From Bacteroidaceae bacterium (lineage in GTDB: Bacteria; Bacteroidota; Bacteroidia; Bacteroidales; Bacteroidaceae), in assembly GCA_017617575.1 (NCBI GenBank), contig JAFZVY010000144.1:1-43605 (forward strand): a stretch of 43,605 bases of DNA, written 5' to 3'. The position numbers were made by a program, and so were the translations under genes. Positions 1 to 43,440 of this stretch are shown here, in pieces (within the stretch, counting starts at the first letter, position 1; the number at the start of each line of letters is the position of its first letter). The notes under the pieces are model-generated. The model saw nothing but the letters and a program-made list of their open reading frames with translations. It ran no database searches and had not been told where the DNA came from.

Positions 1-81
1 GAAGGCTTCTACAACAACAACAAAAACTATGACAACAAAAATTGTGTTGTTATTACCTCCAAATACGAAGGCTTCTACAAC
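1..81 (-). CRISPR. End of a type VI-B-like CRISPR array
   Basis: A 36-nt unit at 46-81 begins GTTG and ends CAAC. Its last 15 nt (GAAGGCTTCTACAAC) also stand at 1-15, exactly one 30-nt spacer (16-45) to the left, so the window opens inside a repeat-spacer-repeat array. Read on the minus strand, the repeat closely resembles published Cas13b (type VI-B) repeats as I remember them: GTTG start, TTTGGAGGTAA near the middle and ACAAC end, at the family's 36-nt repeat and 30-nt spacer sizes. Its terminal GTTGT/ACAAC can pair and an inner CCTTC/GGAGG stem is possible, as in VI-B repeats. No further repeat follows to the right. If the minus orientation is right, 46-81 is the promoter-proximal repeat and 16-45 the first spacer. 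Only 1.4 repeats are visible, so the type is an inference; no cas gene is inside the window. Confidence 0.78.
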
Positions 82-189
82 CCAATGTTAAATCTTTCCT
101 GACAAATAAGTATGTAAAAACATACTTCCACATAAAAAAGTTGTCATAATTGTGTATTTATTTGATTTAACACTCAGATTTTTTCGATG

Positions 190-197
190 CAAATATA
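190..197 (-). promoter_or_regulatory. Candidate leader promoter of the CRISPR array (-7 box)
   Basis: CAAATATA on the plus strand is TATATTTG on the minus strand, a match to the Bacteroidota -7 consensus TAnnTTTG. It sits about 110 bp to the right of the last repeat and points into the array. No good -33 box is seen, so support is partial. The surrounding CGATGCAAATATA is also found at the GH3 promoter near 22913. The rest of 82-374 is AT-rich leader and intergenic sequence with no gene. Confidence 0.45.
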
Positions 198-334
198 CAA
201 AAATATGTCTTAATGAAGATACACATGTTTTTATATTATTAAATTTTAGTATAATTTTAGGGCTACGTATGCTTATAATATAACCTTATATGAAAGAAAA
301 AATAAAAATGCCATTGTTTTTTGAGTGTTTTTTG

Positions 335-342
335 TACTTTTG
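335..342 (+). promoter_or_regulatory. Promoter of the WYL gene (-7 box)
   Basis: TACTTTTG fits TAnnTTTG, with a TTG-containing -33 region at about 314-316. Transcription would start near 349, some 25 nt before the ATG at 375. It faces away from the CRISPR leader, so the two units are divergent. Confidence 0.6.
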
Positions 343-374
343 CCTATTAAACAAATAATGCCAAAAAATCAAAT

Positions 375-1472
375 ATGGAAAATCGTCGAAAATTATTTAA
401 TAAAGATAGTGATTTTGGTAAACTAACCATATTAGTTTATAATGAACTCATGACAAGGAAACCTGTCACGTATGGAGATATAATTGAAAAGTTTGATGGA
501 AAAAAGAAAGATTCCAATCTAAAACAAACAGCTTGGAAGCACTACCATAGCTTGAAAATTGCTTTTAATACAGTAAAAATAGAAATAAAAAACAAAATTA
601 AGGAAAAATACGGTTACGATGGTGTTTGCATTAAAGAACATAAACGTGGGAAAGAAGTTACATATACATATATCTTTGAGAAGGATAACAATCCTCTTTC
701 CGAAGAAATAAAGGAACCAAAGCCAAATATTCCTAAGGAACTATATAGAAAAATCTGCTGGGCATGCGTTTGTATGGCTCCGAAAGACTTACTTAGTTAT
801 CTTTTTGAGGGACAAAAGATTTCTATCGACCATTTTATAAGCAAAGAAAACAAGCACATCCTTTTTACAAGTGCAAACAGAATAAAACAAACTCACATAG
901 ACTTATTTCCTAATTTATACAAATATATAGAAAACAAAAAAGTGTTATCTTTTATTTACGAACCATTTGACGAGCCAGAGAAAAAAATAACATTGCATCC
1001 CTACGGCTTGAAGGAATACAACGAGCGTTGGTTTTTGTGTGGCTGCCATGGTTGTAAAGATGAAAGAATGCGAGTGTACCCTCTTGATAGGATAAAAAGC
1101 GACTCTGTACGAGTAAAAGAGGATGTCACATACATAGAACCCGCAGAAAATCTTTGTGAAGATTATTTCAAGGACATAATAGGCGTGACCAAGAAAAAAC
1201 ATGACCAGAAATGCGAGATAATCTTACGTGCATACTCAAAGTATATGTTTATGTTGATGAAGACTAAACCTCTTCACCAGAGTCAACAGGTCAAAATAGA
1301 ATACAATGATGAAAATAAATATGGAGAGTTTACCATCATGATTATGCCTAACAACGAATTCTATGGCAGAATACTTCAAATGGGCGAAAATCTTGAAATA
1401 ATATCTCCCGAAGAAGTTAGAAACGAGATAAAAAAACGCACGAATGAAATGGCAAAACGCTATAATCAATAG
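375..1472 (+). CDS. WYL-domain transcriptional regulator
   Basis: A 365-residue protein whose central region (about 189-242) is a WYL domain: a short strand, then HPYGLKEYNERWFLCG and the RVYPLDRI segment, with the W-Y-L position read as R-W-F. About residues 290-365 match the WCX-type C-terminal region that follows WYL domains. Residues 1-100 are basic and probably the DNA-binding part, but do not show a textbook helix-turn-helix. WYL proteins are ligand-sensing regulators often found in defence islands and beside CRISPR loci, where some repress or modulate the system. This one starts about 290 bp from the CRISPR repeat and is divergently transcribed. Cytoplasmic, no signal peptide. The start at 375 follows the -7 box at 335 by a normal distance. 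Regulation of the array is inferred from position only. Confidence 0.85.
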   Translation: MENRRKLFNKDSDFGKLTILVYNELMTRKPVTYGDIIEKFDGKKKDSNLKQTAWKHYHSLKIAFNTVKIEIKNKIKEKYGYDGVCIKEHKRGKEVTYTYIFEKDNNPLSEEIKEPKPNIPKELYRKICWACVCMAPKDLLSYLFEGQKISIDHFISKENKHILFTSANRIKQTHIDLFPNLYKYIENKKVLSFIYEPFDEPEKKITLHPYGLKEYNERWFLCGCHGCKDERMRVYPLDRIKSDSVRVKEDVTYIEPAENLCEDYFKDIIGVTKKKHDQKCEIILRAYSKYMFMLMKTKPLHQSQQVKIEYNDENKYGEFTIMIMPNNEFYGRILQMGENLEIISPEEVRNEIKKRTNEMAKRYNQ

Positions 1473-1565
1473 GATGTTATCTCTTCTATTAAAGAAAAAA
1501 AGGTAACAAAAAAAAGTGTCACCACCCTTGCCAGTGAAATACTTTGTGATGTAAAAATAACGCCG

Positions 1566-1573
1566 TATTTTTG
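1566..1573 (+). promoter_or_regulatory. Promoter of the YkvA-family gene (-7 box)
   Basis: TATTTTTG fits TAnnTTTG about 80 nt before the ATG at 1649, giving a leader of roughly 65-70 nt that contains the hairpins at 1592-1632. Confidence 0.6.
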
Positions 1574-1591
1574 CATTGCAATAAACAAAAA

Positions 1592-1632
1592 GCCTCTTGT
1601 TGTTTTGCCCTCCAAGGAGGTATTATTGAGGC
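1592..1632 (+). promoter_or_regulatory. Nested hairpin in the YkvA leader
   Basis: GCCTC (1592-1596) can pair with GAGGC (1628-1632), enclosing CCTCCAAGGAGG (1609-1620), itself a tight hairpin. It lies just upstream of the start codon, so it could affect translation; it fits no riboswitch class I recognise. Confidence 0.35.
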
Positions 1633-1648
1633 AAAAAATTAATATATT

Positions 1649-1984
1649 ATGCTGAACACAATAGCAAAATATCAGGATGCTTTCACAGAGGAAGGCATGT
1701 GGGACAAACTTTCTAAGTTCGCAAAAAAAGGTGGACGTAAGTTTATTGAGAACGTTTTGATCTTATGGTATGCATTTCCCGATGCATCTGCAAAAGACAA
1801 AGCGATTATAATTGGTGCAATTGGATATTTCATCTCACCATTAGATGTAATTCCAGATTTTGTCATAGGCGGATTGTCTGATGACATTGGGGTCGTTGCA
1901 TGGGCTGTAGCTCGTGTTAGAATGAATGCTTCAGCTTCTGCGATACAGAAAGCAAAGCAGAAAACCAATGAATATTTCCAGTAA
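1649..1984 (+). CDS. YkvA family (DUF1232) small membrane protein
   Basis: A 111-residue protein with the DUF1232 signature around residues 50-75: a hydrophobic stretch reading IGYFISPLDVIPDFVIGG, followed by a second short hydrophobic stretch (LSDDIGVVAWAVARV). The SPxDxIPDF core is the family hallmark. These are small inner-membrane proteins of unknown role in many bacteria. The N-terminal 45 residues are soluble and basic (FAKKGGRKF). It stands alone between its own promoter (1566) and a strong terminator (2048), so it is a single-gene unit. Function is unknown beyond the family name. Confidence 0.88.
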   Translation: MLNTIAKYQDAFTEEGMWDKLSKFAKKGGRKFIENVLILWYAFPDASAKDKAIIIGAIGYFISPLDVIPDFVIGGLSDDIGVVAWAVARVRMNASASAIQKAKQKTNEYFQ

Positions 1985-2047
1985 ATATAGAATTGGCACC
2001 TACACTTAGAATCTACAATTAGAGATAATTGTCATTCTAATGTGAGA

Positions 2048-2084
2048 AAGCAAATCGAAATGTTACTTTCGATTTGCTTTTATT
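2048..2084 (+). terminator. Rho-independent terminator after the YkvA gene
   Basis: AAGCAAATCGAAA (2048-2060) is exactly complementary to TTTCGATTTGCTT (2067-2079), with a 6-nt loop and a following T-rich tail. The arms are symmetrical. Confidence 0.8.
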
Positions 2085-2161
2085 TATATATGCAAGATTA
2101 CTTCCATACTGTTAGATACCAACAAAGAGCCAATCCGCCTAATTCAACAAATAATCCATTT

Positions 2162-3316
2162 TTACTTCACAATCGCATCTGCGAGTGCTTCGAGTTGTGC
2201 AAGGTCTGTGGTCTTCATCGAGCTCTTGAGCGTTACGACTGGCTCGACAATCTCGATGTCCTTCATGCCTTCGAGCATTCCGCGCATGATGCGTGCTGCC
2301 TGAGGTGCCCAGCTTCCGTTCTCAATGATACCGATGCGACGACGCTGGTAGCCCTTAATCTTGAGCTTGTGCAGGAAGAAGTGCATTGGTGGGAAGATGT
2401 CACCATCGTATGTGGCACATGCGAGGACAACGGAGCCCATGCGGAAGGCATCCTCTATCACCTCTGCCATGTCATCACGTGAGAGGTCAGCTACTGCCAC
2501 CTTTGAAGCACCCTTTGCTTCAAGCATCTCTGCCAACTTCTCGGCAGCCTTGCGTGTGTTACCGTGGATTGATGCGTAGGCAACGAGCACTCCGCCCGGA
2601 GTCTCCACGTCGTACGCACTCCATATCTTATAGAGGCGAAGAGCCTCAGCCATCTTCTCTCCCTCAAGTACAGGACCGTGAAGAGGAGCAATCTTGCTCA
2701 CCTTTAGACCAGCCACCTTCTTGAGTACGTTTGACACATTGTTGCCATACTTGCCACAGATGTTGAAGTAATAGCGACGTGCCTCACATGCCCAGTCATC
2801 CTCATCGGCAGAATAAACGCCGAACTTACCAAAGCCGTCTGCGCTGAAGAGCGTATCCTCACTTGCAAGGTAAGTCATGATAACCTCTGGCCAGTGTACC
2901 ATAGGTGCAGCGATGAAGCTGAGCACCATGCCTGCGCCGAGGTCGAGCGTGTCACCTTCCTTGACTGTTGCGATATTCACCTGAAGATTCTCGTTGAACT
3001 GTCCCATGAACTTCTTGGCATTGTCCGAGCACACGATGGTGATGTCTGGGAACTTTGCCACGAGTGAAGCCACCGAACCGCTGTGGTCTGGCTCCATGTG
3101 CTGAACCACGAGATAGTCAGGAGTGCGACCGCCGAGAGCAGCCTCAAGGTTAGCCATCCACTCGTTCTTCTTGCGCAAGTCAACGCTATCCATAATGGCT
3201 ATCTTGTCGCCCTCGATGAGGTAACTGTTGTAGCACATTCCGTCTGGCACTACGTACTGACTCTCAAAAAGGTCTATATCATGGTCATCCACTCCGATGT
3301 ATTTTACTTTGCTCAT
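2162..3316 (-). CDS. Flavodiiron protein (A-type flavoprotein, FprA/ROO-like)
   Basis: A 384-residue cytoplasmic enzyme that reduces O2 to water and/or NO to N2O. Residues 1-240 are a metallo-beta-lactamase-like diiron domain with the ligand motif HMEPDH (His73, Glu75, Asp77, His78), His141, Asp160 in LFSADGFGKFG and His213 in PLHG. Residues 243-384 are a flavodoxin-like FMN domain starting VAYASIHGNTRKAAEK. I place the start at the internal Met (MSKVKYIG, codon ending at 3316) because the longer reading frame, starting at 3367, begins inside the -7 box at 3365. Electrons usually come from rubredoxin, and a rubredoxin gene lies directly upstream on the same strand (3471-3629). The pair would protect an anaerobe against oxygen or nitrosative stress. 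Whether O2 or NO is preferred cannot be read from sequence. Confidence 0.93.
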   Translation of the reverse strand: MSKVKYIGVDDHDIDLFESQYVVPDGMCYNSYLIEGDKIAIMDSVDLRKKNEWMANLEAALGGRTPDYLVVQHMEPDHSGSVASLVAKFPDITIVCSDNAKKFMGQFNENLQVNIATVKEGDTLDLGAGMVLSFIAAPMVHWPEVIMTYLASEDTLFSADGFGKFGVYSADEDDWACEARRYYFNICGKYGNNVSNVLKKVAGLKVSKIAPLHGPVLEGEKMAEALRLYKIWSAYDVETPGGVLVAYASIHGNTRKAAEKLAEMLEAKGASKVAVADLSRDDMAEVIEDAFRMGSVVLACATYDGDIFPPMHFFLHKLKIKGYQRRRIGIIENGSWAPQAARIMRGMLEGMKDIEIVEPVVTLKSSMKTTDLAQLEALADAIVK

Positions 3317-3364
3317 AATAGATTGTTTTGTGACGTTGTTAATATTATTGTATTTTTCCGCTTG

Positions 3365-3395
3365 CAAAGATAGCGTTTCAATTCATAATATCAAA
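3365..3395 (-). promoter_or_regulatory. Promoter of the flavodiiron gene
   Basis: CAAAGATA (3365-3372; TATCTTTG on the coding strand) is a -7 box, and CAAA at 3392-3395 is a -33 box at 19-bp spacing. This gives the gene its own promoter and excludes the upstream ATG as start. Confidence 0.7.
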
Positions 3396-3406
3396 TAAAA
3401 ACATGC

Positions 3407-3446
3407 AAAAAGACCGTGCTTGCATCAATTATGCAGCACAGTCCTC
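3407..3446 (-). terminator. Terminator after rubredoxin
   Basis: On the minus strand an imperfect stem (GACTGTGCTGCAT with ATGCAAGCACGGTC) is followed by five T residues. It lies between the rubredoxin stop and the flavodiiron promoter, so the two genes are probably separate transcripts. Confidence 0.6.
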
Positions 3447-3470
3447 TTGTTATTGCTTACGATTCCTTCC

Positions 3471-3629
3471 CTATCCCACTGGTGAGAACTCGTCCTTGCC
3501 TACACTACACATAGGACAGAGGAAATCATCTGGAAGGTCCTCGAATGCTGTTCCTGGTGCTATACCGTTATCTGGGTCACCTACTGCTGGGTCATACTCC
3601 CAACCACATACATCACATACGTACTTCAT
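3471..3629 (-). CDS. Rubredoxin
   Basis: A 52-residue protein with two CxxC iron-binding motifs: [12 protein letters not shown] (Cys5, Cys8) and [12 protein letters not shown] (Cys38, Cys41), ending FSPVG. The spacing, the aromatic residues and the GxxPGTxFxDLPDDFxCP segment are diagnostic of rubredoxin. It carries single electrons in the cytoplasm, and the flavodiiron protein encoded next downstream is the classic acceptor. It has its own terminator at 3407. No clear TAnnTTTG box lies between it and the small gene at 3714-3959, 85 bp upstream, so the two may be co-transcribed. Confidence 0.95.
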
Positions 3630-3713
3630 AGTCTTTATGGTTTTTAATAGTGAATAATCGCTAAGACCGAGGAAGGTCTTAACCCTTTATTATGCTTTCT
3701 GTCTCTGTTCCCC

Positions 3714-3959
3714 TTAGTAGCTCATGCCCTTGCCTTCGCTCCATTCCTTCAGGAGATAGCCGTGGGCATCAGTACAATGGTCGTGAATCCTCTGCTGTAG
3801 CTCCGGCGTAAGGCTTGACCACAAGCGCGTGCAAGCAGGATAAGTGATTGTGTCGTTCCACTCCACTGCCTTCTTGTCAACTATCTTGCAGGCAATGCGC
3901 TCTTTCTGGGCTATTGTCAGCGAAGACCACCATACGTTCATGTCTTTATTCATATTCAT
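3714..3959 (-). CDS. Small conserved-looking hypothetical protein
   Basis: I do not recognise this protein. It is about 81 residues, starting MNMNKDMNVWWSSL, with no signal peptide or membrane segment, rich in Trp, His and charged residues; two WSSLT segments (near residues 10 and 50) suggest a short internal repeat. The start is placed at 3959 because an in-frame upstream ATG at 4001 lies inside the -7 promoter box (3995-4002); a second ATG at 3953 is equally possible. It precedes rubredoxin and the flavodiiron protein on the same strand, so a role in redox stress is possible but unproven. Confidence 0.7.
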   Translation of the reverse strand: MNMNKDMNVWWSSLTIAQKERIACKIVDKKAVEWNDTITYPACTRLWSSLTPELQQRIHDHCTDAHGYLLKEWSEGKGMSY

Positions 3960-3994
3960 ATAGTTTTTCAAAGTGCTTCTTTTGTATTCGCGTG

Positions 3995-4002
3995 CAAACA
4001 TA
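3995..4002 (-). promoter_or_regulatory. Promoter of the small hypothetical gene (-7 box)
   Basis: CAAACATA (TATGTTTG on the coding strand) fits TAnnTTTG. It overlaps the first in-frame ATG, which therefore cannot be the start. Confidence 0.55.
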
Positions 4003-4104
4003 CGAAACTTCTTTTAATTGTCCAAGGATTTTGTTACTTTTATTTCCAACTAATCCTCCTCACATTGCTTCGTACCGAGGAACATGGCCAACCGTCACGG
4101 GACA

Positions 4105-5244
4105 TCACAAGCAGAATCCCATGGATATGATTAGGCTGTTGCGTCCCTTTGGCTCCTTGCTGCCAGTGAAGAACTGGTATTCGTAGCCAACGCCCAAGGA
4201 TATGCGCTCACGCATCATGTACTGCACCTTGAGTCCCAAGCCGAGGAGCGTATGATTCTTGTTCTGCACCTCTTTATATCCTCGGCGCACAGGTCCATGC
4301 TGACGCAAGGCGAGATACGAAGCCGTGGCATAAGGTGCAAAGTTCCACACGTCATAGCCGTTCTGAACTGGGAGGTTGAATCCAAGCCTTCCCGTCATGT
4401 CCCACGAATGAACAGGACCTATAACTCGGATGAATGGGTCGAAGTCCTCGTCATAATAGATATAGAGCAACTCATGGCAAGGAGTATAGCCCAATCCAGC
4501 ATATAAGTACTTATATGTGAAGTCAACGTAGGCGCCATTAGACTGGCACACCTCGCCCCACGCATCGCCGTCAATCCAGTTGGTGGTGAATCCCACGGAA
4601 ACGGACGACAAGGCATCCCTCCACGACACTATCTTATTGGAAGGATATGCCTGCCTCCAGTCGTCAGCAAGGTTGTCAAGATACTTGTCGTTGTCTATGG
4701 TCATCATGCGCCAAGGTAGCACCTTGTCACCCTCGAACGTACCCAATATGGCATTAGGCTTGTCATTAGGAAAGACGTTGCACACGTTCAGTATCTTGTA
4801 TTCATCCTCCATGCCCGAAACGGAATAGCGGTAAGCCACGCCATCATCAAACACCCTTATCTCAAGCACGGCACCCGTGACGGATTCCAAGATAAGGCTG
4901 TTGTATCTGTCGCCCAATATTGACAGCACATCATAGTCCTCGCCCGCAAGCCTGACGGGAACAGACGTAGTGCGACTGGTTGCCACGTCCGCCTTGCCAA
5001 AGGACATACGCTTGCCACCTGAGTACAGTTCTAGTCCCACCTCACGATTCTTGACAACAGTCTTGCCGTCGGCAGTAACATTAATCCTCATTCCGTCGGC
5101 TACCATCATCTTCGTGTTCACGTTGCGTCTCCTCACCATATTAATGCTTACGTTCACATTATTGTCAGGAGAGGAAACGGTATATTGTGCGTTTGCAATG
5201 AAAGGGGAACACACACACAAGAGCAGTAAAACGTATTTTTTCAT
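4105..5244 (-). CDS. Exported protein: GH97 N-terminal-like domain plus barrel-like C-terminus
   Basis: A 379-residue exported protein with signal peptide MKKYVLLLLCVCSPFIANA. Residues 21-185 resemble the N-terminal beta-sandwich of GH97 glycosidases (SusB-type): SSPDNNVNVSI, then LGDRYNSLILE and EIRVFDDGVAYRY. The GH97 catalytic barrel that should follow is absent. Instead residues 210-379 alternate short amphipathic strands with turns (VSVGFTTNWI, GAYVDFTYKYLYAGLGY, LLGLGLKVQYMM, ISLGVGYEYQF) and end NSLIISMGFCL, the look of a small outer-membrane beta-barrel. It could be a surface glycan-binding protein or a decayed enzyme with a new C-terminus. There is no SusC/SusD pair nearby. The domain calls are by eye; the combination is unusual. 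Confidence 0.7.
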   Translation of the reverse strand: MKKYVLLLLCVCSPFIANAQYTVSSPDNNVNVSINMVRRRNVNTKMMVADGMRINVTADGKTVVKNREVGLELYSGGKRMSFGKADVATSRTTSVPVRLAGEDYDVLSILGDRYNSLILESVTGAVLEIRVFDDGVAYRYSVSGMEDEYKILNVCNVFPNDKPNAILGTFEGDKVLPWRMMTIDNDKYLDNLADDWRQAYPSNKIVSWRDALSSVSVGFTTNWIDGDAWGEVCQSNGAYVDFTYKYLYAGLGYTPCHELLYIYYDEDFDPFIRVIGPVHSWDMTGRLGFNLPVQNGYDVWNFAPYATASYLALRQHGPVRRGYKEVQNKNHTLLGLGLKVQYMMRERISLGVGYEYQFFTGSKEPKGRNSLIISMGFCL

Positions 5245-5317
5245 ACTGGTATTTGTTTTTCAAACCTGACGTACACTTTTCAAAGCAAACATCAGGGTCG
5301 GGTTCAACATTACGCTA

Positions 5318-5325
5318 CAAAAGTA
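5318..5325 (-). promoter_or_regulatory. Promoter of the GH97-N/barrel gene (-7 box)
   Basis: CAAAAGTA (TACTTTTG on the coding strand) lies about 75 nt upstream of the start at 5244. A purine-rich stretch with CAACAAAA follows near 5354. Confidence 0.55.
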
Positions 5326-5398
5326 AGTTTTCTATCTGAAACAGAAAAGAAAACAACAAAAAAAGCGCACATTAGCGAATGTATTATCGCTTTTTTAC

Positions 5399-5406
5399 TA
5401 CCTTTG
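5399..5406 (+). promoter_or_regulatory. Promoter of the DUF2147 gene (-7 box)
   Basis: TACCTTTG fits TAnnTTTG, giving a leader of about 45 nt before 5458. It is divergent from the promoter at 5318; no clear -33 box is seen. Confidence 0.6.
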
Positions 5407-5457
5407 CACGCAGAAAACAACAAACATATATAAATCACAAACTAAAACAAAACAAAT

Positions 5458-5898
5458 ATGATGAAGAAAGTGCTTCTCACACTTATCGTATGTCTCATGG
5501 CAGGAATAAGTGCAGTTGCCCAAAGTGACGGCGACAAGATTATCGGTACGTACAAGGCTGTACAGGAAGGTAACGTAAGCAAGGTAAAGATTTCAAAGAA
5601 TGGCGATGGCTACAAGGCACAGATTATATGGCTTGAGCATCCTAACAATCCTGACGGAACGCCAAAGCTTGACAAGAAGAATCCAGACAAGGCAAAGCGC
5701 AACGTTCATGCCGACAAGATTGTCCTTGTGGATAAGATAAAGTACAAGGGGGGCGTGTGGAAGGACGCAAAGATATACGACCCAACAAAGGGCAAGAGCT
5801 TCGACGTGGAGATGAAGTTCAAGGACTCAAAGACCCTTCAGGTAAAGGGCTCGCTCCTTATCTTCTCCCAAACCGTGGAATGGATAAAGCTTGACTAA
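5458..5898 (+). CDS. DUF2147 family exported protein
   Basis: A 146-residue protein with signal peptide MMKKVLLTLIVCLMAGISAVAQ. The mature part reads DKIIGTYKAVQEGNVSKVKISKNGDGYKAQIIWLE, then a lysine-rich loop, then KGGVWKDAKIYDPTKGKSFDVEMKFKDSKTLQVKGS. This is the DUF2147 lipocalin-like beta-sheet pattern, with the usual G-x-W/Y start and the IYDPxxGK motif. The family is periplasmic, common in Bacteroidota and Proteobacteria, and of unknown function. The second ATG (5461) is an equally good start. It is a single-gene unit with its own promoter and terminator. Confidence 0.88.
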   Translation: MMKKVLLTLIVCLMAGISAVAQSDGDKIIGTYKAVQEGNVSKVKISKNGDGYKAQIIWLEHPNNPDGTPKLDKKNPDKAKRNVHADKIVLVDKIKYKGGVWKDAKIYDPTKGKSFDVEMKFKDSKTLQVKGSLLIFSQTVEWIKLD

Positions 5899-5929
5899 GC
5901 TATAATGCTTTTAGCAAGACAATCAGAAA

Positions 5930-5965
5930 AGCCGTTCGGAACAAGTGACCGAACGGCTAATTTCA
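5930..5965 (+). terminator. Terminator after the DUF2147 gene
   Basis: AGCCGTTCGG (5930-5939) pairs with CCGAACGGCT (5949-5958) across a 9-nt loop. The T tract is short (AATTT). Confidence 0.65.
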
Positions 5966-6033
5966 TATATGGTGAGTATGTAAACATATCAGAAGAATGA
6001 TATAGACGCATAAGACTGATGGAGACATAAAAG

Positions 6034-6065
6034 AAAAGGTCTTGCAGAAATCTGCAAGACCTTTT
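6034..6065 (-). terminator. Terminator after tRNA-His
   Basis: AAAAGGTCTTGCAGA (6034-6048) and TCTGCAAGACCTTTT (6051-6065) form a 15-bp perfect stem. On the minus strand it is followed by T-rich sequence, just downstream of the tRNA. Confidence 0.75.
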
Positions 6066-6071
6066 ACTGAG

Positions 6072-6146
6072 GGTGGAGGGTGGGACTCGAACCCACGACA
6101 TTCAGAACCACAATCTGACGCTCTAACCAACTGAACTACATCCACC
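6072..6146 (-). tRNA. tRNA-His (GTG)
   Basis: The minus strand folds as a tRNA: acceptor GTGGATG with an extra G at -1, the histidine identity element; D arm GTTC...GAGC; anticodon arm CAGA-TTGTGGT-TCTG with anticodon GTG; T arm GTGGG-TTCGAGT-CCCAC; 3' end CCTCCAC plus C opposite G-1. One acceptor pair (T6 with C67) is a mismatch. CCA is not encoded. A promoter (6199-6230) and a terminator (6034-6065) frame it. Confidence 0.93.
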
Positions 6147-6198
6147 ATGTTAGTGCTTATCGGGCGTTACCACTGGGGTGTCTCCCGTTTTGCGAGTG

Positions 6199-6230
6199 CA
6201 AAGGTACAATAATCTTTTGAACTGACAAAA
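6199..6230 (-). promoter_or_regulatory. Promoter of tRNA-His
   Basis: CAAAGGTA (6199-6206; TACCTTTG on the coding strand) is a -7 box, with CAAAA at 6226-6230 as -33 box at 19-bp spacing. Confidence 0.7.
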
Positions 6231-6317
6231 CTTTTTTGAAAAATTTCAAATGTATTATTTCAAATTTAGCTTTCAAAAGCAAGCTTTCTCATATCCCAAA
6301 TGTCAAATCTCAAAATT

Positions 6318-6348
6318 ATGCCTCCGGAACGCTTATTCCCGGAGGCAT
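6318..6348 (-). terminator. Terminator after the CE1-like esterase
   Basis: ATGCCTCCGG (6318-6327) pairs with CCGGAGGCAT (6339-6348). On the minus strand the stem is followed by AATTTTG. It lies about 30 bp after the esterase stop. Confidence 0.7.
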
Positions 6349-6380
6349 AGATTTGAAATTATAGAGTTGACTTTTACTTC

Positions 6381-7361
6381 TTATTTTCCATAAATAAGAG
6401 GAAGCGCCCAGTACAGATACTCGTTAATGTGTCCGTAGAAGTGCTGTCCACCTTCCTTCATCTCGAAACGGAGGTTTGCGTTAGGCTTATTGTAACGGAA
6501 CAAGGAAGCGTTCTTAGAGAGAGCCTCCACGAGATTCTTCTGTGGATTACCTGCTATGTCCTTTGTACCCGTGTAGCCATACACCTCGAAGTCGTTGCCA
6601 TAAGGTGACTTCTCCAGCTGCTCGTTAAGCCATATAGCAGCTGTCTTTGCATCCTGACGCTCACCCTTGTCATTGTGAATCCAGAGGTCGCCACTAAGTG
6701 GGAGGAAATACTTCACGGCATTCACTCCGTATGCAAGCTGGAACCAAGTGGAAAGAGCGCCCATAGAGAAACCTCCATATGCACGATGGCTGCGTGAACG
6801 TGTTACAGCCATGCTGTCAGTACCCTCAAGGAACGTGTTGTAGGCATTCTCAACGGCAGGGATAAGGTCATTCTGAAGCTCCGTATGGAAGTTGCGTGTA
6901 CGAGCAATACCGTCGTTCATACCATTTGAGCCTATGTTCTCGTCGTCATCATAGAATGTAGGAGTAACCACGATGATTGGTCTCATCTTGCCGTCTGCAA
7001 TAAGGTGGTCGAGCACCTGACGAAGAGGAAGCCAGTCCTGTGGAGGAGTGAGGAACGAAGTAGTCTTGTCGCCACCACCGTGCATGAGATAGAGCACGTC
7101 ATACTTAGTCTTCTTGTCGCCTGCGTTGTAGTTGTAAGGGAGATACACCCTCGCATGCTTCTTCAACGTCTTACCGTTTGAATGGGCTGTGTAAGTAAAC
7201 TCCTCAATCTTACCCTGCTTGCTTGCAGGCTGACGAATAGCGTCAGGAATTGGTTGAATCTGTTTGATTGTCTTTTCAAACTCTGAATCTCCTACCTGTG
7301 CCATACTTGACATTGACACGAGGAATGCAGCGATAAATGCTGGCAAAGTCTTTTTAAACAT
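6381..7361 (-). CDS. Secreted CE1-like esterase (feruloyl/acetyl-xylan esterase family)
   Basis: A 326-residue protein with signal peptide MFKKTLPAFIAAFLVSMSSMAQ. The alpha/beta-hydrolase fold shows KYDVLYLMHGGGDKTTSF (oxyanion-hole region, about 87-103), the nucleophile elbow YGGFSMGALS with Ser199, and the C-terminal GGQHFYGH region containing the likely catalytic His (His307 or His311). This matches the putative esterase/CE1 group, whose members remove feruloyl or acetyl groups from xylan side chains, often as esterase domains in xylanase systems. The GH3 enzyme at 20310-22886 would suit the same plant-polysaccharide diet. Its promoter is not clear: GCGAAGATA near 7420 is one base from the usual GCAAAGATA. 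Confidence 0.85.
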   Translation of the reverse strand: MFKKTLPAFIAAFLVSMSSMAQVGDSEFEKTIKQIQPIPDAIRQPASKQGKIEEFTYTAHSNGKTLKKHARVYLPYNYNAGDKKTKYDVLYLMHGGGDKTTSFLTPPQDWLPLRQVLDHLIADGKMRPIIVVTPTFYDDDENIGSNGMNDGIARTRNFHTELQNDLIPAVENAYNTFLEGTDSMAVTRSRSHRAYGGFSMGALSTWFQLAYGVNAVKYFLPLSGDLWIHNDKGERQDAKTAAIWLNEQLEKSPYGNDFEVYGYTGTKDIAGNPQKNLVEALSKNASLFRYNKPNANLRFEMKEGGQHFYGHINEYLYWALPLIYGK

Positions 7362-7974
7362 AATTTTTAAGAATTAGTTTTAGTATTAGTTATTACGATA
7401 TTAAATTCACTAAACGCTGCGAAGATACGAGTATTTTTCGGAATAACGAACATTTAGCCAACTATTATTTCCATACGCCCCTCTATATTAACTAAAATCC
7501 GAGTTAATATATAAAGTCACATATAGTTAATCCAGATGCTTACATATAACTAACATATCAGCTTCCCTCACCTCCTTTTGTCCTATATGTACGGAAGCTA
7601 TCCATCCCCCATCATGGGTGCTTATCGTAAATATTGCCAGCAAGATTTCCTTGCATAACGAGGAAAACAAAAAACGCACGCGAAAAAAAAATATTTGCGT
7701 CCCGATAAAGAATGATTTTGTACGCGTACAAAAATTTTTTTCTACGCGCACAAAAAATCGGCCATTTCCAGCTAATTTTAAAGAACAATTGCGTATGTAT
7801 TCACGCACACATGACTTATCGTAATTATACGACTACAAATCAAAAACGCACAGAATGTAGCATAAGTCAAAATAGGAGTAGGAATTGACATTAAGCAAGC
7901 TTCACAAGATACTTCTCTCAAATGTTAACTTGTTAATTTGTTAACATCGCAAAAACGAGACATTATAGTACAAA
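7362..7974. other. Gene-free intergenic region
   Basis: I see no credible gene. It holds the palindromic TACGCG repeat at 7716-7757, with a degenerate relative just to the left (CGCACGCG...ATATTTGCGT, 7675-7700), and an inverted repeat ATGTTAAC...GTTAACAT (about 7922-7946). The short open frames here are repeat-encoded (TRTKN-type peptides). Confidence 0.6.
7716..7757 (-). repeat. Palindromic TACGCG dispersed repeat, copy 1
   Basis: It contains the 10-bp palindrome GTACGCGTAC (7720-7729), an A5/T7 stretch, then CTACGCGCACAAAAAAT. Read on the minus strand it closely matches the copy at 43382-43428 on the plus strand, so the two are inverted copies of one element of about 45 bp. Confidence 0.75.
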
Positions 7975-22886: not shown

Positions 22887-22912
22887 ACTGATTAAAATAA
22901 TTGTTTTCGATG

Positions 22913-22943
22913 CAAATATAGAGAAATAATTTATACGCACAAA
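22913..22943 (-). promoter_or_regulatory. Promoter of the GH3 gene
   Basis: CAAATATA (22913-22920; TATATTTG on the coding strand) is a -7 box, with CAAAA starting at 22940 as -33 box at 19-bp spacing. Confidence 0.7.
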
Positions 22944-41816: not shown

Positions 41817-41995
41817 TTTAGATATTCAAAAATTCAAGGGATTGAAGATTCAAGAGTTCAAAAGTTCAATTGGTTCAAAAGTTAGTTCAATTGGTTCAAG
41901 AGTTCAAATGTTCAATGGCTTGAAGGTTCAAGAGTTCAACCCAACAATAACATAAAAAAACAAGAACTCACAAACTCACAAACTTCCCAACTCCA
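41817..41995. repeat. GTTCAA-type repeat spacer between the signal peptidase and ligase genes
   Basis: It is filled with overlapping copies of (AA)GTTCAA, GGTTCAA and GATTCAA (e.g. AAAAGTTCAATTGGTTCAAA), ending with AACTCACAAACTCACAAACTT. The same words occur in the gaps at 38408-38474 and 37113-37327. Confidence 0.65.
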
Positions 41996-43381: not shown

Positions 43382-43440
43382 TTTTTTGTACGCGCAGAAA
43401 AAAAAATTTTTGTACGCGTACAAAAAATATTTTCTGCGCG
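43382..43440 (+). repeat. Palindromic TACGCG dispersed repeat, copy 2
   Basis: TTTTTGTACGCGCAGAAAA is followed by TTTTTGTACGCGTACAAAA and then TTTTCTGCGCG. The span 43391-43440 is a near-perfect 50-bp palindrome centred on GTACGCGTAC (43412-43421). The left 45 bp match copy 1 at 7716-7757 in inverted orientation. Confidence 0.75.

What the first reader, a model, noticed from the sequence alone, without database searches (positions are those of the whole stretch)
1..81. Promoter-proximal end of a type VI-B-like (Cas13b) CRISPR array at the left edge
A 36-nt repeat with GTTG/CAAC ends, a 30-nt spacer and strong similarity on the minus strand to published Cas13b repeats point to an RNA-targeting CRISPR system just outside the window. 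The repeat sequence differs from those I remember, so it could belong to an undescribed Cas13b or a related effector.
Basis: partly seen in the sequence, partly recalled or inferred. Interest (0 to 1): 0.75.

Follow-up and report, generated by a model that had tools for sequence, protein, structure and literature searches.

The report
Truncated end of Cas13b-type CRISPR array
The left edge of this contig holds the first repeat and first spacer of a bacterial CRISPR memory array of the RNA-targeting (Cas13b) kind, an ordinary find whose enzyme gene is not in the available assembly.

Summary
Observation confirmed. On the minus strand, 81-46 is a complete 36-nt repeat (GTTG...CAAC), 45-16 a 30-nt spacer and 15-1 the start of a second copy (15 of 15 bases identical, 66-nt period), cut by the contig end. 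The repeat is of the type VI-B kind: it aligns without gaps to 22 repeats from loci found here, 21 with a Cas13b over the curated cut-off, at up to 27 of 36 identical. Their profile scores it 31.0 bits, against at most 13.1 for 32 repeats from Cas1-bearing loci of the order and 24.7 in 20,000 end-preserving shuffles. Its RNA fold is the VI-B stem / internal loop / stem. The array should be transcribed leftwards, so an effector is expected left of the contig end, as in a Bacteroidales MAG with one of the two closest repeats (array-csx27-cas13b). No Cas13b, Cas1 or further repeat copy was found in the 86%-complete assembly, and no Cas13b in 36 congeners. The effector is therefore inferred; an unassembled gene, an orphan array or a divergent Cas13 remain open. 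The spacer has no convincing target. The neighbouring WYL gene has no relative in the Cas13b loci. Probably an ordinary member of a known kind.

The parts
46..81 (-). first complete 36-nt CRISPR repeat of type VI-B kind, at the upstream end of the array
16..45 (-). 30-nt spacer, low complexity (GTTGTT-rich), no convincing target found
1..15 (-). first 15 nt (5' end on the minus strand) of the second repeat, cut by the contig end
82..374 (-). upstream (leader) side of the array, inferred from its direction; no further repeat copies
189..197 (-). candidate -7 box TATATTTGC pointing at the array (Bacteroidetes-type consensus recalled, not from a call); no matching -33 element found
375..1472 (+). 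WYL-WCX regulator gene, divergent from the array; a neighbour, not shown to belong to the system

Best explanation
This is the upstream (leader-proximal) end of a type VI-B CRISPR array, read on the minus strand and running off the left end of the contig. Most likely the array is transcribed leftwards from a promoter in 82-374. A Cas13b encoded further left, perhaps after a csx27-like gene, would cut the transcript into crRNAs of spacer followed by repeat, recognising the repeat by its stem / internal loop / stem. The crRNA would guide the HEPN RNase to complementary phage transcripts. Shown here: the repeat, the spacer and the truncated second repeat, the predicted fold, the VI-B class of the repeat. 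Inferred: direction of transcription, promoter, effector and its position, crRNA processing and RNA targeting.
For: Repeat, spacer and period as in VI-B (arrays at Cas13b loci mostly have a 66-nt period). Profile of 22 repeats, 21 from loci with a Cas13b over the NF038190 cut-off (6, 15 of 15 tested) and one below it (L018): query 31.0 bits; leave-one-out members 19.9-51.4 (the query exceeds 3 of 22); best of 32 control repeats 13.1; 0 of 20,000 shuffles reach it. Two stems with an internal loop, as in the six members folded beside it, z -3.89. Array and cas13b on the same strand in 25 of 26 loci with a known cas13b strand. One of the two closest repeats (L057/L008, 27 of 36) belongs to an array-csx27-cas13b locus with the array upstream of the effector, which would place our effector left of the window; in the other (L018, 27 of 36) the array also precedes its 728-738-aa Cas13b-like frame.
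Against: No Cas13b found in the host assembly, no other repeat copy there, no Cas13b in 36 other genomes of the genus and no repeat within 3 mismatches in 44 others. In most compared loci the array follows the effector (19 of 27); here that would put cas13b inside the window, where none is found. Degenerate copies, often a mark of the far end, sit at the 3' end in some compared arrays (L029, L030, L086) and at the 5' end in others (L080, L060, L009), so they do not confirm the leader side. Only one full repeat is visible. One search had no positive control of its own. The two-way test against repeats did not include type VI-A, VI-D or V repeats.
Confidence: 0.7

Rival explanations
1. Orphan remnant: a real VI-B array end whose cas13b has been lost from this lineage, so it no longer works, or works only with an effector supplied in trans.
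For: No Cas13b found in the assembly, none in 36 congeners, no Cas1 in the assembly, and no other repeat copy.
Against: The assembly is 86% complete in 162 contigs and the contig breaks inside the array, so the missing gene would be exactly where sequence is missing. The two visible repeat stretches are identical over their 15 shared bases.
Confidence: 0.17
2. The array serves a divergent Cas13 (of the Cas13e-i clades, a compact Cas13b, or the L175/L176 kind) that the Cas13b HMM does not see.
For: One of the two closest repeats (L018, 27 of 36) precedes a 728-738-aa frame with a Cas13b match below the cut-off (91 of 150 bits). Passages of PMC9554183 describe Cas13e-i with repeats and spacers of 36 and 30 nt on average. 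L175/L176 proteins give only 27 and 24 bits with the Cas13b HMM, and this kind was not searched for in the host assembly.
Against: The repeat ends in GTTG/CAAC like those of the Cas13b loci, not in GCTG/CAG[CT] like L175/L176; the L018 frame ends near a contig end and may simply be truncated.
Confidence: 0.09
3. A repeat of another CRISPR type (II-C, V, I or III) that resembles VI-B by chance.
For: Some arrays near Cas1 in the order share the 66-nt period, 36-nt length and GTTG/CAAC ends (L133; probably II-C, a recalled label).
Against: Best of 32 control repeats scores 13.1 against 31.0 for the query; no Cas1 in the assembly. Cas9 and Cas12 themselves were not searched.
Confidence: 0.03

Closest known systems
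Type VI-B CRISPR-Cas (Cas13b with Csx27), e.g. L057, JAIOSH010000176.1, Bacteroidales MAG SMBSF39 bin_16
   Same: 36-nt repeat, 27 of 36 identical, 66-nt period, array on the cas13b strand and upstream of csx27-cas13b
   Different: in the window csx27 and cas13b are not seen; the repeat differs at 9 of 36 positions
Bergeyella zoohelcum ATCC 43767 VI-B array (L064)
   Same: repeat 24 of 36 identical, gap-free; Cas13b over the cut-off
   Different: array follows cas13b there and has 118-nt spacings in part
Arrays of Cas1-bearing loci of the same order (some probably type II-C, recalled label)
   Same: some share GTTG/CAAC ends and a 66-nt period
   Different: internal sequence does not fit the VI-B profile (best control 13.1 bits against 31.0)

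Membership tests
Type VI-B CRISPR-Cas | 36-nt repeats of conserved sequence and predicted fold | tested here: met
   feature as stated in passages of PMC8209922
Type VI-B CRISPR-Cas | about 30-nt spacers in a regular array | tested here: inconclusive
   one 30-nt spacer and one 66-nt period visible before the contig ends
Type VI-B CRISPR-Cas | Cas13b effector with two RxxxxH motifs | tested here: inconclusive
   none found in the available assembly; the expected place is outside the contig and the assembly is 86% complete, so the feature is unmet so far and membership as a complete system is not claimed
Type VI-B CRISPR-Cas | Csx27 or Csx28 accessory gene | not tested
   not searched in the host assembly; of the window's left part 10 proteins went to PADLOC, whose library holds Csx27 models, and none matched them; Csx27 is inconsistently present in VI-B1 according to passages of PMC8209922
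Type VI-B CRISPR-Cas | no adaptation module (cas1/cas2) in the locus | tested here: inconclusive
   no Cas1 in the assembly, but the locus is cut and Cas2 was not searched
Type VI-B CRISPR-Cas | crRNA of spacer followed by repeat, RNA targeting | not testable with these tools
   needs RNA-seq and an interference assay
Type VI-D (WYL accessory) | Cas13d effector and VI-D repeat | not tested
   no Cas13d search and no VI-D repeats for comparison; considered only because a WYL gene lies beside the array. The repeat fits the VI-B profile

The most novel reading that the evidence does not exclude
The array belongs to a divergent Cas13 effector, new to its genus, that current Cas13b models miss and that may be controlled by the divergent WYL gene beside the leader.
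Probability: 0.05. Interest if true: 0.55.

Novelty: new member of a known kind. Interest (0 to 1): 0.17.

Why it matters
If the continuation were recovered it would add one VI-B system to a genus in which 0 of 37 genomes searched, the host included, show Cas13b. By itself the fragment adds one more VI-B repeat and nothing mechanistically new.

Tried and rejected
Exact repeat in genome contigs and viral contigs: 0. Exact spacer in viral contigs: 0. Spacer against phages: 158 records at E up to 10, best E 0.05, 89% over 28 nt, Escherichia phages; taken as low-complexity chance. Spacer with up to 3 mismatches in 45 genus genomes: only itself. Window 1-2500 against phages: none. The Cas13b of L008 in viral contigs: none. 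WYL gene as a VI-B partner: not supported; best E 3.8 in 67 overlapping records of Cas13b or Cas13b-like loci, while all 20 WYL loci in the same kind of database match (E 2.3e-14 or better). DUF1232 neighbour: relatives 39% identical in L089 and L090, on the contig of a Cas13b match, but DUF1232 matches occur in 23 of 45 genus genomes, so not pursued. Empty-site comparison in the genus: given up; outside the host the WYL relatives are at most 41% and the DUF1232 relatives at most 45% identical. The sigma-70 scan of 1-400 is no better than shuffles. Rfam on the window: two tRNAs only.

Rows dropped before the count. From the Cas13b side: repeats that were not 36 nt or were incomplete (L028, L080, L086, L030, L072, L061, L031, L068, L070), the near-duplicate L090, repeats of another pattern (L087, L088, L019-L021), and second records of the same contig. 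Not every Cas13b locus showed such an array: of the 14 regions fetched, five (L032, L035, L013, L014, L033) showed none of this kind. Of 36 control arrays (repeats of 24 nt or more, from 40 regions), 3 duplicates and one 105-nt irregular repeat were dropped, leaving 32. In one search the query file held two proteins; one search repeated the WYL test with it alone.

Full report
What is there. The window is contig C55 of a 3.38-Mb assembly in 162 contigs, 86% complete. At its left edge, minus strand, lie a complete 36-nt repeat (81-46), a 30-nt spacer (45-16) and the first 15 nt of a second repeat (15-1), with a period of 66. No other copy of the repeat was found in the assembly: up to 3 mismatches for the 36-mer, up to 1 for either 18-nt half. 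None within 3 mismatches is in 44 other genomes of the genus, and no exact copy in the genome or viral collections. In the rest of the window the next best 36-mer has 15 mismatches.

Which kind of repeat. I collected Cas13b loci with the NCBIfam model NF038190 (21 of 393 genomes of the order with a match, 14 of them over the cut-off) and with an alignment of ten Cas13b proteins in named genomes (34 loci, among them Bergeyella zoohelcum ATCC 43767, Prevotella pallens and Hoylesella pleuritidis). Many of their arrays have GTTG...CAAC repeats, mostly of 36 nt with a 66-nt period; five of the 14 regions fetched showed no such array. As a control I took arrays near Cas1 genes of the same order (40 regions, 36 arrays, 32 distinct repeats used). 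A profile of 22 repeats of the Cas13b set scores the window's repeat 31.0 bits; left-out members score 19.9-51.4; the best control scores 13.1; 20,000 shuffles that keep both ends reach at most 24.7. Of the 22 loci, 6 have a Cas13b over the cut-off, 15 more (15 of 15 tested), and one, L018, is below it. The best matches are 27 of 36 (L057 and L018). The window's repeat sits in the lower part of the family's range, above 3 of the 22 left-out members. Repeats of types VI-A, VI-D and V were not compared.

Fold. The repeat RNA is predicted to form a 5-bp stem, a 4 x 4 internal loop and a 7-bp stem with a 4-nt loop (-11.2 kcal/mol, z -3.89, 0 of 200 shuffles as good). The six family members folded beside it also give two stems with an internal loop, with stems of slightly different length. 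[quoted passage not shown]

Orientation. In 25 of 26 loci with a known cas13b strand the array is on the same strand as cas13b, the exception being L086; with L018 included, the array is downstream of the effector in 19 of 27 loci, upstream in 7 and on the other strand in 1. The window's array is on the minus strand, so a downstream-array layout would place cas13b inside the window, where none is found. The upstream layout places it left of base 1. One of the two closest repeats, in L057/L008, has that layout: array, csx27 (NF040557, 109.7 bits), cas13b (NF038190, 727 bits; RxxxxH at 106 and 1017), one strand. Its Cas13b matches the solved B. zoohelcum Cas13b (6aay, E 3.7e-80). The other, in L018, also lies upstream of its 728-738-aa Cas13b-like frame. 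Degenerate copies in the compared arrays lie at either end and do not settle which end is the leader; I infer the leader side from the strand alone.

What is missing. Neither NF038190 nor the ten-protein alignment finds a Cas13b in the assembly (without a positive control), nor is there a Cas1 (73 of 149 genomes searched there have one). In the genus, 0 of 37 genomes, the host included, have Cas13b. Because the contig breaks inside the array and the assembly is incomplete, this does not separate an unassembled system from an orphan array. Csx27, Csx28, Cas9, Cas12 and a divergent effector of the L175/L176 kind were not searched for in the host assembly.

Neighbours. Right of the array lie a divergent WYL-WCX gene (375-1472) and a DUF1232 gene (1649-1984), then, among the ten next proteins scanned, an ODP-family flavoprotein, a GH97 N-terminal domain, DUF2147, an esterase, phosphoglucose isomerase, glycerol-3-phosphate dehydrogenase, a class II aminoacyl-tRNA synthetase, a mechanosensitive channel, an AAA protein and one without a match. 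The WYL protein hits PADLOC's generic CRISPR-associated WYL models, but none of 67 overlapping records of Cas13b or Cas13b-like loci carries a relative (best E 3.8), while all 20 WYL loci match. I do not count it as a part. A TATATTTGC box at 197-189 on the minus strand fits the Bacteroidetes -7 consensus as I recall it; TAnnTTTG is expected 0.23 times per 293 nt of one strand here and no -33 element was found, so it is a weak lead.

Spacer. Low complexity; no exact match in viral contigs, only chance-level phage matches (best E 0.05) and no second site within 3 mismatches in the genus.

Verdict. A real, truncated VI-B-type array end; an ordinary member of a known kind whose effector is unseen.

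Noticed in passing
L175:4158-7397 (-) with array about 1935-4090; L176:1758-5009 (+) with array 5136-7250; L021: Proteins of 1079 and 1083 aa, 31% identical to each other, each with RxxxxH motifs near both ends, beside 36-nt GCTG...CAG[CT] repeat arrays mostly of 66-nt period. Only a weak Cas13b C-terminal match (27 and 24 bits), no NCBIfam or PADLOC match, Pfam only below cut-off, no PDB match for the L176 protein. Possibly a Cas13 clade beyond Cas13b, or one of the roughly 1100-aa Cas13f-i clades of PMC9554183 (passages seen; sequences not compared). L021 is a third candidate by its HMM hit and repeats.
   Followed up: partly
L173:4710-6896 (L018): A 728-738-aa Cas13b-like frame whose best match is to the N-terminal part of Cas13b, ending near the contig end, preceded by an array whose repeat is 27 of 36 identical to the window's: a truncated gene or a compact effector.
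   Followed up: partly
L089:2653-2970 and L090:2654-2971: DUF1232 genes 39% identical to window 1649-1984 on the contig of a Cas13b match in two Prevotellaceae MAGs; the host also has a second copy, 72% identical, at G000:C37:16402.
   Followed up: no
L032 and L035 (both G101): Cas13b matches over the cut-off whose regions show no GTTG...CAAC array but other short repeats of about 61-68-nt spacing, one of them GCTGTCTC...AACAGC.
   Followed up: no
window 7716-7757 and 43384-43425: AT-rich palindromic TTTTGTACGCG repeats, 86% complementary over 42 nt, 35.6 kb apart.
   Followed up: no
window 181-205 and 22904-22928: 25-nt near-repeat (92%) holding TATATTTGCATCGAAAA on the minus strand, perhaps a shared promoter form.
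   Followed up: no
window 41825-41956: Cluster of TTCAAGAGTTCAA direct repeats.
   Followed up: no
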